A stretch of DNA of 64,000 nucleotides, taken from NCBI GenBank assembly GCA_030684555.1, contig JAUXVN010000040.1:124001-188000 (forward strand). The letters are read 5' to 3'. Under the pieces are notes generated by a model that saw only the letters and a program-made list of their open reading frames with translations, searched no databases and was not told where the DNA came from. The stretch comes from Ignavibacteria bacterium. GTDB lineage: Bacteria > Bacteroidota > Ignavibacteria > Ignavibacteriales > Ignavibacteriaceae. The position numbers were made by a program, and so were the translations under genes. Below are positions 45,606 through 55,835 of this stretch, piece by piece (the stretch's first letter is position 1; each line of letters begins with the position of its first letter).

Positions 45606-46769
45606 ATTAATAATTGTTTTCTTGTTGTGTTGGATGGAGTTGGTGTAGGTGAGTTACCAGATGCAAATCTTTATGGAGATGCCGGCAGCAATACTCTTGC
45701 AAATATAGCAGCAACAATCGGAGGATTAAATTTACCCAATTTAGAAAAATTGGGGTTGGGTAATATTATTGATATATCAGGAATCTTAAAAGTGCCATCA
45801 CCGTCAGCAGCATTCGGTAAATTGGCAGAGATATCTAAAGGAAAGGATTCAACTACAGGTCACTGGGAATTAGCCGGATTACCAGTTGATTTTGATTTTT
45901 CTTATTATCCAAACGGATTTCCAAAACATTTAACTGACTTGTTCCTTGTTAAAACAGGGTGTGAAGGATTTTTGGGTAATAAACCTGCTTCAGGTACCGA
46001 GATAATTAAAGAATTAGGAGATGAGCACTGTAGAACCGGATTTCCAATTATTTATACTTCTGCTGATTCAGTTTTTCAGATAGCCGCCCATGAAGATGTA
46101 ATTCCCCTTGATAGATTAGATGTGATTTGTAAAATAACAAGGAATGAAGTATTAAAATTTCCGGAAGTTGTTGGGAGAGTGATTTCTCGTCCATTTATTG
46201 GGACAAGTGGAAATTATACACGCACGACCAATAGACATGACTATTCAATTGATCCACACGGTAAAACAATTTTTAATTTTCTTCAAGAAAATTCAATCAC
46301 AACAATAAGTATTGGTAAAGTGAGTGATCTTTTTAATCATCAAGGAATTGATTTGAAATTTCCAACAAAATCGAATAAAGAAGGTTGTGACAAACTTATT
46401 TCAGTATCGTCTAATTATAGTAACACCTTTGTTTTTACTAATCTTGTTGATTTTGATGTCTACTACGGTCATCGCAATGATCCAATCGGTTTTGCAAATG
46501 CGCTGAAACAATTTGATGAATTTTTACCAGGTTTTATTTCAAAATTAGATGAAAGTGATTTGTTAATTCTAACGGCAGATCACGGAAACGATCCTACAAC
46601 TCCAAGTACGGATCATAGCAGGGAATATATACCGCTGATTGTTTATGGTGAAATGGTTGATAGGAAGGATTTGGGTGTTCGTGAAACTTTTGCCGATGTT
46701 GGTAAATCTATCGGTGACTTTTTCAATATTAAAAATTCACTAACCGGGAAAAGTTTTCTTAATGAATAA
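45606..46769 (+). CDS. deoB: Phosphopentomutase, probable ATT start
   Basis: A DeoB-type alkaline-phosphatase-superfamily mutase that interconverts (deoxy)ribose 1- and 5-phosphates. Motifs: metal Asp in VVLDGVGVGELPDA, phosphorylated Thr in GKDSTTGHWE, metal ligands in DFDVYYGHR, ADHGND and TDHSRE. The first ATG-like codon is GTG at 45627, but that would leave only one residue before the metal Asp and delete the first beta strand. No ATG, GTG or TTG lies further upstream in frame. ATT at 45606 follows AGAGG by five bases and gives MNNCFLVVLDGVG, which fits the family. The gene precedes two microcompartment vertex genes. Confidence 0.85.
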   Translation: MNNCFLVVLDGVGVGELPDANLYGDAGSNTLANIAATIGGLNLPNLEKLGLGNIIDISGILKVPSPSAAFGKLAEISKGKDSTTGHWELAGLPVDFDFSYYPNGFPKHLTDLFLVKTGCEGFLGNKPASGTEIIKELGDEHCRTGFPIIYTSADSVFQIAAHEDVIPLDRLDVICKITRNEVLKFPEVVGRVISRPFIGTSGNYTRTTNRHDYSIDPHGKTIFNFLQENSITTISIGKVSDLFNHQGIDLKFPTKSNKEGCDKLISVSSNYSNTFVFTNLVDFDVYYGHRNDPIGFANALKQFDEFLPGFISKLDESDLLILTADHGNDPTTPSTDHSREYIPLIVYGEMVDRKDLGVRETFADVGKSIGDFFNIKNSLTGKSFLNE

Positions 46770-46822
46770 AAATTTTGAAATTGCGTACGATAATATTTTA
46801 TTAAAGGATTTGAGGTACTAAA

Positions 46823-47101
46823 ATGATTTTAGGGAAAGTAATAGGGACTGTTTGGTCAACAAGAAAAGATGAAAATTTAGTCGGTTCAAAGTTTTTAATA
46901 GTAAGGCAACTGGACTTAAAATTTAATGAGAAAGATAATTTTGTTATCGCAGTAGATAGTGTCGGTGCCGGAGAAGGTGAAATCGTCTTAGTTGCAACTG
47001 GTAGTTCTGCACGTCAAACAAGTATTACCAAAAACAAACCGATAGATGCAGTTATAATGGCTATAGTTGATAAACTCGACACCCCAAATCTTAGTAATTA
47101 A
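46823..47101 (+). CDS. Bacterial microcompartment vertex protein (EutN/CcmL, BMC-P) 1
   Basis: 92 residues covering one complete EutN_CcmL domain: MILGKVIGTVWSTRKDENLVG at the start, LIVRQLDL, then AVDSVGAGEGEIVLVATGSSAR and PIDAVIMAIVDKLD. Such proteins form pentamers that cap the vertices of icosahedral protein shells. It lies 53 bp after the phosphopentomutase, so co-transcription is likely. The hexameric shell proteins (BMC-H, BMC-T) that any shell needs are not in this window. Confidence 0.9.
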   Translation: MILGKVIGTVWSTRKDENLVGSKFLIVRQLDLKFNEKDNFVIAVDSVGAGEGEIVLVATGSSARQTSITKNKPIDAVIMAIVDKLDTPNLSN

Positions 47102-47118
47102 TAATTAAACCCAAAAAT

Positions 47119-47202
47119 ATGGAATTGAATAAAGAACAAATTTTCATTAACTTTCCACGCTTAAATGTTTTATCAGAAACGATTAGATATTTATGTATTT
47201 AG
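47119..47202 (+). CDS. Short ORF overlapping the second BMC-P gene
   Basis: 27 codons, MELNKEQIFINFPRLNVLSE then TIRYLCI, ending at TAG 47200-47202, inside the start of the next gene (ATG 47193). It has no clear ribosome-binding site. It could be a translational coupler for the second vertex gene, or chance. Low confidence that it is translated. Confidence 0.25.
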   Translation: MELNKEQIFINFPRLNVLSETIRYLCI

Positions 47203-47462
47203 GCAAAGTAATCGGAAACATCTGGGCAACAAAAAAATATCCGGCTGTCCATAGTCTTAAAATGATGTTAATACAGCCGTTAGATGCAGAACAAAATAAT
47301 TCTGGCGAACCTTTAATTGCAATTGATACTGTCGGTTCAGGACCAGGGGAGATAGTTTTCTACATAACAGCTTCTGAAGCGGTTATTCCTTTACCGGTAG
47401 ATTTTGCCCCTGTTGATGCATCGATAGTCGGGATAGTTGATAGTATAAATATTGAAAATTAA
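47193..47462 (+). CDS. Bacterial microcompartment vertex protein (EutN/CcmL, BMC-P) 2
   Basis: 89 residues, again a single EutN_CcmL domain: MYLGKVIGNIWATKKYP, MLIQPLDAEQ, AIDTVGSGPGEIVFYITASEA and PVDASIVGIVD. It differs substantially from the first copy, so this is an old duplication or two specialised vertex types, as seen in many microcompartment loci. It lacks a strong ribosome-binding site, and a 27-codon ORF overlaps its start. rpoD follows 19 bp later. Confidence 0.9.
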   Translation: MYLGKVIGNIWATKKYPAVHSLKMMLIQPLDAEQNNSGEPLIAIDTVGSGPGEIVFYITASEAVIPLPVDFAPVDASIVGIVDSINIEN

Positions 47463-47481
47463 AATAAATGAGGTAGTGTAA

Positions 47482-48336
47482 GTGAGAATAACTAAGCAAT
47501 ATACCAATCGGGAGAGTCAATCTCTTGATAAATATTTGCAGGAAATAGGTAAAGTTGATCTGTTAACCCCGGAGCAGGAAATTGAGTTAGCAATTAGGAT
47601 CAAAAAAGGGGATCAGTTAGCTCTTGAGGGATTAACGAAAGCGAATTTAAGATTCGTTGTGAGTGTTGCAAAACAATATCAAAACCAGGGACTTTCACTT
47701 GGTGACTTGATTAATGAAGGCAACTTAGGTTTGATTAAAGCCGCAAAAAGATTTGATGAAACTCGCGGTTTTAAATTTATTTCATATGCTGTTTGGTGGA
47801 TTCGCCAGTCAATTCTACAAGCGTTGGCTGAACAATCACGAATTGTCCGATTACCTCTAAATAGAGTTGGAGCTTTAAATAAAATCGGGAAAGCATACAG
47901 CAACCTCGAACAAGAATTTGAACGTGAACCTAGTGCTGCAGAATTAGCAACCGAATTAGAAATGGATGTTAATGAAGTAGCCGATACATTGAAAATTTCT
48001 GGGAGACACGTTTCAATGGATGCTCCTTTTGCTCAGGGTGAAGACAATAGACTGCTTGATGTTTTACAGAATGACCAGCAACCTTCTCCCGATTCAATTT
48101 TAATGACAGAATCTTTAAAACAAGAAATTGAAAGAGCACTTTCGACACTAACAGAAAGAGAAGCTGAAGTAATAAAACTTTATTTTGGTTTAAACAAAGA
48201 ACATTCATTAACTCTTGAAGAAATTGGTGAGCGTTTTAATCTTACTCGTGAAAGAGTTCGCCAAATAAAAGAAAAAGCGATTAGAAGATTAAGACATGCT
48301 TCACGCAGTAAGAATTTAAGAGCTTATCTCGGATGA
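47482..48336 (+). CDS. rpoD: Primary RNA polymerase sigma factor, short FCB type
   Basis: 284 residues from GTG 47482. Region 1.2 begins [20 protein letters not shown]. Region 2 has [20 protein letters not shown] and [16 protein letters not shown] (-10 recognition). Region 4 has [15 protein letters not shown] and [20 protein letters not shown] (-35 helix-turn-helix). The N-terminal region 1.1 is absent, as in the Bacteroidetes/Chlorobi group, and the length matches that group's housekeeping sigma. It overlaps the next gene by four bases (ATGA). Confidence 0.93.
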
Positions 48337-52900: not shown

Positions 52901-52991
52901 CATTTTATAAAAAGAGATTTTTTTAATTACTTCATTATCAACTATTTTGTAATTTAGAAGAATTAAATTGCAATTACTAAGGAGGGTCACG

Positions 52992-53693
52992 ATGTCTTCA
53001 ACAAGAAATTCAACTGCAAGATTACTAACGGGATTGATTCTGATAATAATTGGTTCACTTTACCTTTTGAAAAATTTCGGTTGGTTGGAGTTCGATATCC
53101 TTGAACATATTATTTCCTTCCCTTCATTACTTCTTTTCATCGGAATTGTAATCACAATAAATGCATCAAAAAAAGGATTTGGAATTATTCTGATCATTGT
53201 AGGATCACTATGGCATTACGCACGGATTACTGATTCAATAGATTTCGGAAAGTTGATTATCCCATTGATTTTACTGGGCTTGGGACTATACATTATTTTC
53301 AGACAAAGGAAATTCGGTAGTACTATTGACGCAGGTAAAAACTATTCTAACGATACACTTGAAGACATTGCAATCTTTGGAGGCGGGAATAAAACTATCA
53401 TTAGTAACAACTTCAAAGGGGGTACAATAACTTCGATTTTTGGCGGTTCCGAAATCGATTTAACAAGATGTCAACTTGCTGATGGTGATCAAATTATAGA
53501 TGTATTGGCTGTTTTCGGCGGAAGCACTTTTTTGGTTCCTTCCGACTGGAATGTGATTGTTGATGTACTCCCAATTTTTGGCGGGTTTTCGAATAAAACA
53601 AATAAACATTTTAGAGACGAAATTAATACCAATAAAACATTAATTATTAAGGGACTCGTAATATTTGGTGGTGGAGAAATAAAAAGATATTAA
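52992..53693 (+). CDS. LiaF/DUF5668-like membrane protein
   Basis: 233 residues from ATG 52992, eight codons inside a longer frame, because AAGGAGGGT lies just before it. About four hydrophobic helices span residues 10-105 (LLTGLILIIIGSLYLLKNFGW is the DUF5668 pattern). The C-terminal half is a beta-rich domain of repeated IFGG turns (AIFGGGNKTI, SIFGGSEIDL, VFGGSTFLVP, PIFGGFSNKT, IFGGGEI), the LiaF-like cell-wall-active antibiotic response fold. In Firmicutes LiaF senses envelope stress with LiaRS; no two-component genes are adjacent here. Confidence 0.75.
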   Translation: MSSTRNSTARLLTGLILIIIGSLYLLKNFGWLEFDILEHIISFPSLLLFIGIVITINASKKGFGIILIIVGSLWHYARITDSIDFGKLIIPLILLGLGLYIIFRQRKFGSTIDAGKNYSNDTLEDIAIFGGGNKTIISNNFKGGTITSIFGGSEIDLTRCQLADGDQIIDVLAVFGGSTFLVPSDWNVIVDVLPIFGGFSNKTNKHFRDEINTNKTLIIKGLVIFGGGEIKRY

Positions 53694-54263: not shown

Positions 54264-55835
54264 ATGAAATTAGACAAAGATCTTTTATCAATCCAGGAAG
54301 CAAGAGATTTAGCAAAAGCCGCAAAGGATGCTCAACTTGAGTTTAAACATTTTAGTCAGGAGCAAGTTGACAAAATAGTCAAGGCAATGGCTGAGGCAGG
54401 TTATTCTGAAGCCGAACGGCTGGCTAAATTTGCTGCAGATGAAAGTGGTTTTGGAAGATGGCAGGATAAGGTTATTAAAAATCAATTCGGGACAAAAAAT
54501 GTTTATGAATCAATCAAAGATTTAAAAACAGTAGGTGTTATTGATAGTCAAGCGAATGGAAAGATTTTAAAAATAGCAGAACCTATGGGAGTTGTGTGTG
54601 CACTTGTACCTTCTACAAATCCAACTTCAACCGCGATGTTTAAAGCGCTTATTTCTGTTAAATGTAGAAATGGAATGGTTGCAAGTCCTCATCCCCGGAC
54701 TGTTAATTCAACGGTAGAAGCGATTCGAGTATTATCAAATGCCGCAGAAAAAGCAGGTGCTCCAAAGGGTTTGTTGCAATGTATGTCAATTCCAACAATA
54801 GAGGGAACAGAAGCTCTAATGCGTGATAAAAATATTGCAGTTATTTTGGCAACGGGGAGTAATCCTATGGTTAAAGCTGCATATAGTTCAGGTAAACCTG
54901 CATACGGAGTTGGTTCAGGAAATGTTCCTGCATTTATTGAGAGAACTGCAAATTATAAAAAAGCTGTTGCCGATATTATTTATGGAACAACTTTCGATAA
55001 TGGAACGCTCTGCTCCTCGGAACAAGCTATGATTGTCGATCGCTCATTAAAAGAAAAAGTTATATCCGAAGCAAAAAAACAAGGCGGCTATTTTTTAAAT
55101 GAAGACGAGAAGAAAAAATTAGCGAATACAATTATTCTAAATAAGGGGGGTTTGAACCCTGAAATTGTTGGAAAGTCAGCAAGATGGATTGCTGATTATG
55201 CGGGTTTTTCTGTTGATGAAAACACTCGGGTCTTAATTGCATTTTGTGAAGAGGTCGGTAGGCACGAACCACTTTCTGTTGAAAAACTATCACCTATTTT
55301 AGCGTTTTATACAGTAGATGGGTGGTTAGAAGGATGTCATAAATGTCTCGACTTACTTAACTTCGGCGGGGTGGGACATACTATGGTAATCCACTCAAAC
55401 GATTCTGAAATAATTATGAAATTTGCTCTTGAAAAACCTGCATTTAGAATCTTAGTTAATACAGTATCATCAATAGGAGCTGTAGGTTATACAACCGCAT
55501 TAGCGCCATCATTAACTTTAGGTTCGGGTACATGGGGTGGTTCAATTATTAGTGAAAATGTTACTGCAAAACACCTAATGAATATTAAGTATCTTGCATA
55601 CGAAACAAATCCAGTTAATGAGTCTTTTGGAATAACTTCAACTGTCGGTGAAACGAATTCGAAAAATTTTTTGTTCGAAATAGAGGAGCGATTAAAAGCA
55701 AGAGCTGGGAATCCTATTTACAAAAATGAAATTAAATCAAACTCAAATTTAAATAGTGATGGTGATAAAAAATTTGGAACTGGATTATCAGAAGTGGAAT
55801 TAAATAAATTGATTAATGAATTTAAAAAACGATAG
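54264..55835 (+). CDS. CoA-acylating aldehyde dehydrogenase with C-terminal encapsulation-type tail
   Basis: 523 residues of the EutE/PduP group: aldehyde + CoA + NAD to acyl-CoA + NADH. Conserved parts include [17 protein letters not shown] (coenzyme site), [12 protein letters not shown], catalytic Cys250 in [11 protein letters not shown], and GSGTWGGS near residue 420. The core ends near GNPIYKNE (about 489). A flexible Asn/Ser/Asp/Gly linker (490-507) is followed by a short amphipathic helix [16 protein letters not shown] (508-523) with hydrophobic residues spaced i, i+3, i+4. That is the layout of microcompartment encapsulation peptides. The two BMC-P shell genes lie 7 kb away. Confidence 0.88.

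What the first reader, a model, noticed from the sequence alone, without database searches (positions are those of the whole stretch)
45606..47462. Phosphopentomutase next to two microcompartment vertex proteins without any hexameric shell gene
Two different EutN/CcmL (BMC-P) genes sit in tandem directly after a DeoB phosphopentomutase, and rpoD follows. Seen: complete domains and close spacing. Known: BMC-P pentamers cap shells made of BMC-H/BMC-T proteins, and some metabolosomes are built round deoxyribose-phosphate aldolase, which yields acetaldehyde. Inference: this is a satellite part of a shell locus, with DeoB feeding deoxyribose 5-phosphate from nucleosides. A shell locus split across the genome, with vertex proteins locked beside the housekeeping sigma factor, is unusual.
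Basis: partly seen in the sequence, partly recalled or inferred. Interest (0 to 1): 0.8.

Follow-up and report, generated by a model that had tools for sequence, protein, structure and literature searches.

The report
Scattered deoxyribose-processing bacterial microcompartment
The two shell-corner genes beside deoB and rpoD are one piece of a protein organelle whose genes are scattered through the chromosome of Ignavibacteria, and an enzyme encoded elsewhere (deoxyribose-phosphate aldolase) carries an extra front piece only in species that still have the shell, so this organelle of unknown function probably processes the sugar of DNA.

Summary
In detail: deoB (45606-46769, AUU start), two tandem BMC-P genes and rpoD. 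The shell is complete but scattered. The same genome has two BMC-H, one tandem BMC-T and a third BMC-P on three other contigs. In two closed relatives the parts lie far apart on one chromosome. This is the FRAG microcompartment type catalogued in 2021 for Ignavibacteriae, with no signature enzyme named and function unknown. The model behind it gains independent support. A CoA-acylating acetaldehyde dehydrogenase (54264-55835) follows the shell (30/32 versus 0/9 genomes) and has a conserved C-terminal encapsulation-peptide-like tail. True DeoC, at one syntenic housekeeping locus in shell+ and shell- genomes, carries a conserved ~67-residue N-terminal extension only with the shell (56/56 genomes agree; about 9 coincident changes on a tree, 6 well supported). 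An RnfC-like protein tracks BMC-T exactly; PduL is absent. Best reading: a dispersed deoxyribose-5-phosphate/acetaldehyde metabolosome. Encapsulation and flux direction are untested.

The parts
45606..46769 (+). deoB, phosphopentomutase (AUU start); positional neighbour, possible cytosolic supplier of deoxyribose 5-phosphate, not shell-specific
   Evidence: TIGR01696/NF003766 over cut-off; present in 40 of 41 genomes irrespective of the shell; start codon conservation
46823..47101 (+). BMC-P1, EutN/CcmL shell vertex protein
   Evidence: PF03319 109 bits; closest solved relative is the Haliangium ochraceum shell pentamer 5v74; 75-90% identical in most of the 30 relatives listed as loci
47193..47462 (+). 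BMC-P2, second EutN/CcmL shell vertex protein
   Evidence: PF03319 91 bits; kept beside P1 in 29/30 loci
47482..48336 (+). rpoD, short primary-sigma-type factor; conserved downstream neighbour of P1-P2
   Evidence: best NCBIfam hits RpoD (below the full-length equivalog cut-offs); P1-P2-rpoD also kept in Kryptonia, where deoB is not beside it
54264..55835 (+). AldDH, CoA-acylating acetaldehyde dehydrogenase, probable cargo
   Evidence: TIGR02518 626.5 bits, cut-off 620.1; closest solved 3k9d and 5j78 over residues 4-448; tracks the shell 30/32 vs 0/9
55773..55832 (+). C-terminal encapsulation-peptide-like tail of AldDH (last 20 residues, [20 protein letters not shown]) after a variable linker
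   Evidence: conserved GxGISExEIxKIIxEF motif in nearly all of 29 orthologues after a linker of variable length and sequence

Best explanation
The BMC-P pair supplies vertices for one microcompartment whose parts are encoded at about six separate places: P1-P2 (deoB-rpoD), P3 (dprA), H1-H2 (relA-ruvX-ybbR-tmk), RnfC-like plus BMC-T, AldDH and DeoC (folD-aroA). Proposed working: deoxynucleosides give deoxyribose 1-phosphate; cytosolic DeoB makes deoxyribose 5-phosphate; this enters the shell; [quoted passage not shown] AldDH, held by its C-terminal tail, turns the acetaldehyde into acetyl-CoA with NADH; the RnfC/PduS-like flavo-Fe-S protein next to the PduT-like trimer may reoxidise NADH and pass electrons through the shell. 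Shown: the genes, their scatter, the conserved order, and co-inheritance of shell with AldDH, of shell with the DeoC extension, and of RnfC-like with BMC-T. Inferred: encapsulation, direction of flux, electron route, housekeeping co-expression.
For: Shell parts elsewhere in the genome. In single-contig genomes G002 and G008 the parts are about 100 kb or more apart. AldDH orthologue in 30/32 P1+ and 0/9 P1- genomes, with a conserved tail. DeoC is TIGR00126 at 285 bits; residues 1 to about 64 lie outside all solved DeoC and are conserved in all 30 panel shell+ genomes with DeoC, absent or decayed in shell- ones at the same folD-deoC-trmH-aroA locus. Extension-HMM scores are 110-137 versus 30 or less, including 110-128 for five genomes not used to build it. 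On a tree of four marker proteins shell and extension agree in 56/56 genomes, 9 changes each; 6 independent pairs on well-supported branches all agree, sign test p=0.031. Wider order: 88/94 extension+ genomes have a second (P1-type) match versus 5/25 extension-. RnfC-like in 27/27 BMC-T+ and 0/5 P1+ BMC-T- genomes; PduT-like ICSGK cysteine in BMC-T.
Against: No experiment shows a compartment or cargo. G032 (98% complete) and a few fragmented MAGs have P1 but no DeoC hit; four extension+ MAGs have no P1 hit. G003 has a shell but no AldDH hit. PduL is absent and Fe-ADH does not follow the shell, so CoA recycling is unexplained. The extension is a conserved ~60-residue segment rather than a classic 15-20-residue peptide plus linker; its helix is not more amphipathic than shuffles, and the AldDH fold attempt failed (pLDDT 34). 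Shell status of most non-panel genomes rests on P1 match counts only.
Confidence: 0.78

Rival explanations
1. Class II aldolase organelle: the Aldolase_II gene 4 kb from BMC-P3 is the signature enzyme and the shell handles lactaldehyde from fuculose or rhamnulose phosphate, as in PVM compartments.
For: The gene is a conserved neighbour of P3 and is homologous to the aldolase inside the compact PVM-like locus of G004/G034.
Against: Its orthologue is present in every shell-less relative tested and missing from several shell+ ones; it sits in a ddl-centred housekeeping run.
Confidence: 0.06
2. Same cargo, opposite direction: AldDH reduces acetyl-CoA to acetaldehyde and DeoC condenses it with glyceraldehyde 3-phosphate, so the shell is an NADH sink or carbon store, as proposed for Atribacteria.
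For: Published proposal for DeoC-bearing Atribacteria compartments (PMC6281690); the same genes fit both directions.
Against: The linked RnfC-like/PduT-like pair suggests NADH removal from the lumen (inference); no alcohol dehydrogenase tracks the shell.
Confidence: 0.12
3. The BMC-P genes are relics or have a non-compartment role, kept only by their operon with rpoD.
For: P1-P2 to rpoD spacing is short and rpoD adjacency is the most widely kept link.
Against: P1 is 75-90% identical across most relatives, and shell, AldDH and DeoC extension are co-retained or co-lost repeatedly.
Confidence: 0.04

Closest known systems
FRAG microcompartments (Sutter et al. 2021, PMC8217296)
   Same: Shell genes in up to six places, BMC-P triplet, AldDH mostly remote, found in Ignavibacteriae; this is almost certainly one.
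   Different: The catalogue reports no signature enzyme and no function; here an unlinked DeoC with a shell-linked extension is proposed, and an RnfC-like/BMC-T module is shown to be co-inherited.
SPU (sugar-phosphate utilisation) microcompartments
   Same: DeoC makes acetaldehyde and AldDH turns it into acetyl-CoA; DNA-sugar catabolism.
   Different: SPU has DeoC and RpiB in a compact shell locus; here DeoC sits in a housekeeping locus and RpiB was not searched.
HO microcompartment of Haliangium ochraceum
   Same: Closest solved BMC-P (5v74); PMC8217296 notes unlinked PF01791 enzymes with an N-terminal EP-like extension in some HO genomes.
   Different: HO has a main shell locus; here there is none.
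PduS/PduT of propanediol compartments
   Same: RnfC-like flavo-Fe-S protein next to a PduT-like tandem BMC-T with a conserved cysteine.
   Different: No PduL found; no diol dehydratase was searched for.

Membership tests
BMC-P (EutN/CcmL, PF03319) | Full-length PF03319 domain over the gathering score | tested here: met
   109.2 and 91.1 bits against 25; P3 79.9 bits
BMC-P (EutN/CcmL, PF03319) | Pentamer at shell vertices | not testable with these tools
   homology to solved pentamers only
FRAG microcompartment | Shell genes dispersed over several places with no main locus | tested here: met
   closed relatives G002 and G008
FRAG microcompartment | Three BMC-P genes (triplet) | tested here: met
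   exactly three PF03319 genes
FRAG microcompartment | Shell-protein HMM types assigned to FRAG1-7 | not tested
   those HMMs are not available here
SPU microcompartment | DeoC-type aldolase associated with the shell | tested here: met
   by co-inheritance of the extension, not by locus
SPU microcompartment | DeoC and RpiB encoded inside the shell locus | tested here: not met
   DeoC is at folD-deoC-trmH-aroA, not among shell genes; genome-wide RpiB not searched
PVM / PVM-like microcompartment | Class II aldolase as signature enzyme | tested here: not met
   the aldolase does not follow the shell; PduL, usual in such loci, is absent
Encapsulation peptide (AldDH tail, DeoC extension) | Amphipathic helix of about 15-20 residues joined by a flexible linker, at a terminus | tested here: inconclusive
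   AldDH tail fits by linker and motif, hydrophobic moment not significant; DeoC extension is longer and conserved throughout

The most novel reading that the evidence does not exclude
A growth-coupled metabolosome broken into single genes embedded in housekeeping operons (rpoD, relA-tmk, dprA, folD-aroA), salvaging DNA sugar; DeoC carries a new ~60-residue encapsulation domain (Cys-x-Gly-Trp-Glu-x-Asn-Val ... Gly-Ala-x-Arg-Ile-x-Ala-Gly), and NADH is reoxidised by an RnfC-like protein through an Fe-S cluster in the shell in place of alcohol dehydrogenase.
Probability: 0.4. Interest if true: 0.78.

Novelty: new variant of a known kind. Interest (0 to 1): 0.62.

Why it matters
FRAG microcompartments were listed in 2021 as having no signature enzyme and no known function. 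Finding an unlinked enzyme whose added terminus is lost each time the shell is lost names a substrate (deoxyribose 5-phosphate) and gives a testable tag. It also offers a general method for compartments whose genes are dispersed: look for termini that co-vary with the shell instead of for neighbours.

Tried and rejected
DeoC by Pfam alone misled: the strong PF01791 hits are class I fructose-bisphosphate aldolase (recognised from the alignment); the real DeoC are the weak hits (TIGR00126). I first took those FBA hits to mean that six shell+ genomes lack DeoC, and dropped that. Class II aldolase, PduL, Fe-ADH and deoB itself do not follow the shell. A scan of the loci fetched by then with an HMM of the AldDH tail found no other convincing tagged cargo. 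Single-sequence AlphaFold of AldDH failed (pLDDT 34). Promoter and terminator scans were at chance level.

Full report
What is there. The ATG/GTG/TTG ORF finder starts DeoB at 45627, but the true start is most likely the ATT at 45606: across 95 sequences this position is ATG in 49, TTG in 20, ATT in 14, GTG in 8, ATC in 3 and ATA in 1. The genome (4.34 Mb, 152 contigs, 99.97% complete) belongs with Ignavibacteria, judging by the closest named loci.

The shell is complete but scattered. BMC-H1 and BMC-H2 are at C75:179581-179862 and C75:178523-179575. Tandem BMC-T is at C26:45529-46083 beside an RnfC/PduS-like protein at 46251-47564. BMC-P3 is at C127:161137-161418. AldDH lies in the window 6.8 kb after BMC-P2. 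In the single-contig genomes G002 and G008 the parts are about 100 kb or more apart (for example G002: BMC-T 1.41, AldDH 2.08, P3 2.19, P1-P2 2.70, H 3.09 Mb), so the scatter is not an assembly effect. Most pieces have a fixed address among housekeeping genes: relA-ruvX-H1-H2-ybbR-tmk, P3-dprA, P1-P2-rpoD, while RnfC-like and BMC-T stay together. Gene names here are from sequence by eye except where a family search is cited.

Is deoB part of it? deoB-P1-P2-rpoD is kept in 29/30 panel loci and 72/80 named loci. Two controls weaken the link. In shell-less relatives G006, G012, G018, G019, G022 and G026, deoB and rpoD are neighbours with no BMC-P between them. In Candidatus Kryptonia, Kryptonium and UWPOB_BACT1 loci (L201, L205, L220), P1-P2-rpoD stands without deoB beside it. 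DeoB occurs in 40 of 41 genomes with no systematic difference in frame length. The more widely kept bond is P1-P2 with rpoD.

Finding the cargo. The first searches for a signature enzyme were negative: class II aldolase, PduL and Fe-ADH do not follow the shell. AldDH does: an orthologue is in 30 of 32 P1+ genomes (one a fragment at a contig end) and 0 of 9 P1- genomes. Its last ~75 residues lie beyond the region shared with solved homologues and consist of a variable linker followed by a conserved GxGISExEIxKIIxEF motif, the layout of an encapsulation peptide. The PF01791 search was misleading: its strong hits are class I FBA. The weak hits are genuine DeoC (TIGR00126 285 bits, cut-off 117; residues 68-288 aligned to 6d33). 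In this genome DeoC is at C152:31903-32769 on the minus strand (L241 5904-6770).

The key test. DeoC sits at the same folD-deoC-trmH-aroA locus in shell+ and shell- genomes, so the same gene can be compared. In all 30 panel shell+ genomes with DeoC it has ~67 extra N-terminal residues with the pattern EKxLxDFYC...CxGWExNVxxQPxAVxNI...GAxRIxAGxGxG. In shell- genomes the extension is absent or decayed; G018 and G013 (partial shell) keep remnants, and G022 has a different DeoC. An HMM of the extension scores 110-137 bits in shell+ and at most 30 elsewhere; five shell+ genomes not used to build it score 110-128. On a tree of YmdB-like, FolD, TrmH and AroA, shell and extension agree in 56 of 56 genomes, each with nine changes, six forced by well-supported branches; six independent pairs all agree (sign test p=0.031). 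G013, G048 and G058 were left out as ambiguous. Both states occur inside one genus code (g4). Order-wide, 88 of 94 extension+ genomes have a second match, P1 in the rows shown for most, against 5 of 25 extension- ones: G013 with a decaying P1, G004 and G034 with PVM-like shells, and G048 and G058, whose second matches are a DeoC paralogue or unlisted. These Fisher counts are not corrected for kinship; the tree test is. Exceptions are G032 and six more genomes with a P1-type match but no DeoC row, mostly fragmented MAGs, and G074, G092, G094, G130 (extension without a P1 hit).

Electron module. The RnfC-like protein is present in 27 of 27 BMC-T+ genomes and absent from the five P1+ genomes lacking BMC-T (G013, G014, G015, G017, G020). 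BMC-T matches PduT-type structures (3nwg, 3pac, 3n79) and keeps the cysteine of the ICxGK loop, the position known from PduT to bind an Fe-S cluster (own knowledge, not tested).

Comparison with the literature. PMC8217296 describes FRAG: shell genes in up to six places, a BMC-P triplet, in Ignavibacteriae among others, no obvious aldehyde-producing enzyme, function still to be revealed. PMC4207490 had noted seven BMC-P genes over five loci in Melioribacter roseus and a PVM-like locus there. DeoC with an N-terminal extension in a shell cluster is noted for an Atribacteria isolate (PMC7736352), and an unlinked PF01791 enzyme with EP-like extensions for HO genomes (PMC8217296). I found no paper linking DeoC to FRAG, within an open-access library only.

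Verdict. It is a FRAG-type shell; it works like an SPU compartment but does not have SPU's locus. The new element is the proposed DeoC signature enzyme with its co-inherited extension.

Noticed in passing
window 45606: deoB starts with AUU here and in 14 of 95 sequences (ATC in 3, ATA in 1), a rare start codon recurring at one gene.
   Followed up: partly
L008 8524-9576: BMC-H2 carries a long variable acidic linker and a conserved C-terminal module (NVHQLRKLAR..FPIQGREISKANR..LL..F); no Pfam match at E<=1. By eye it resembles a SAP/Rho-N domain.
   Followed up: partly
L051, L052, L053, L054: G012, G018, G019 keep a BMC-H pair (G022 one BMC-H) with the H2 tail at the ancestral address although no BMC-P, BMC-T or this AldDH was found: hexamers without vertices.
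   Followed up: partly
L081 between deoB and P1: A PIN-domain gene lies between deoB and P1 in over a third of the 80 named loci and between deoB and rpoD in some shell-less genomes.
   Followed up: partly
L056 and L057: G004 and G034 have instead a compact PVM-like locus with PduL, class II aldolase, AldDH, RnfC-like and BMC-T, and their DeoC lacks the extension.
   Followed up: partly
L061-L068, upstream of AldDH: In most f2/f3 relatives a LiaF-like protein, a LytS-type kinase and a LytTR regulator directly precede AldDH; a LiaF-like gene also lies at window 52968-53693.
   Followed up: no
L250-L253, L270-L272, L275, L277: In many f2/f3 relatives DeoC lies 8-15 kb from the BMC-H pair, unlike in f1, perhaps a trace of an older, tighter cluster.
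   Followed up: partly
L008 1928-4804 and L123-L135: A GlcD/GlcF-like FAD and Fe-S oxidase, fused in G000 and G001, recurs near the BMC-H genes in about half of f1, also in G022.
   Followed up: no
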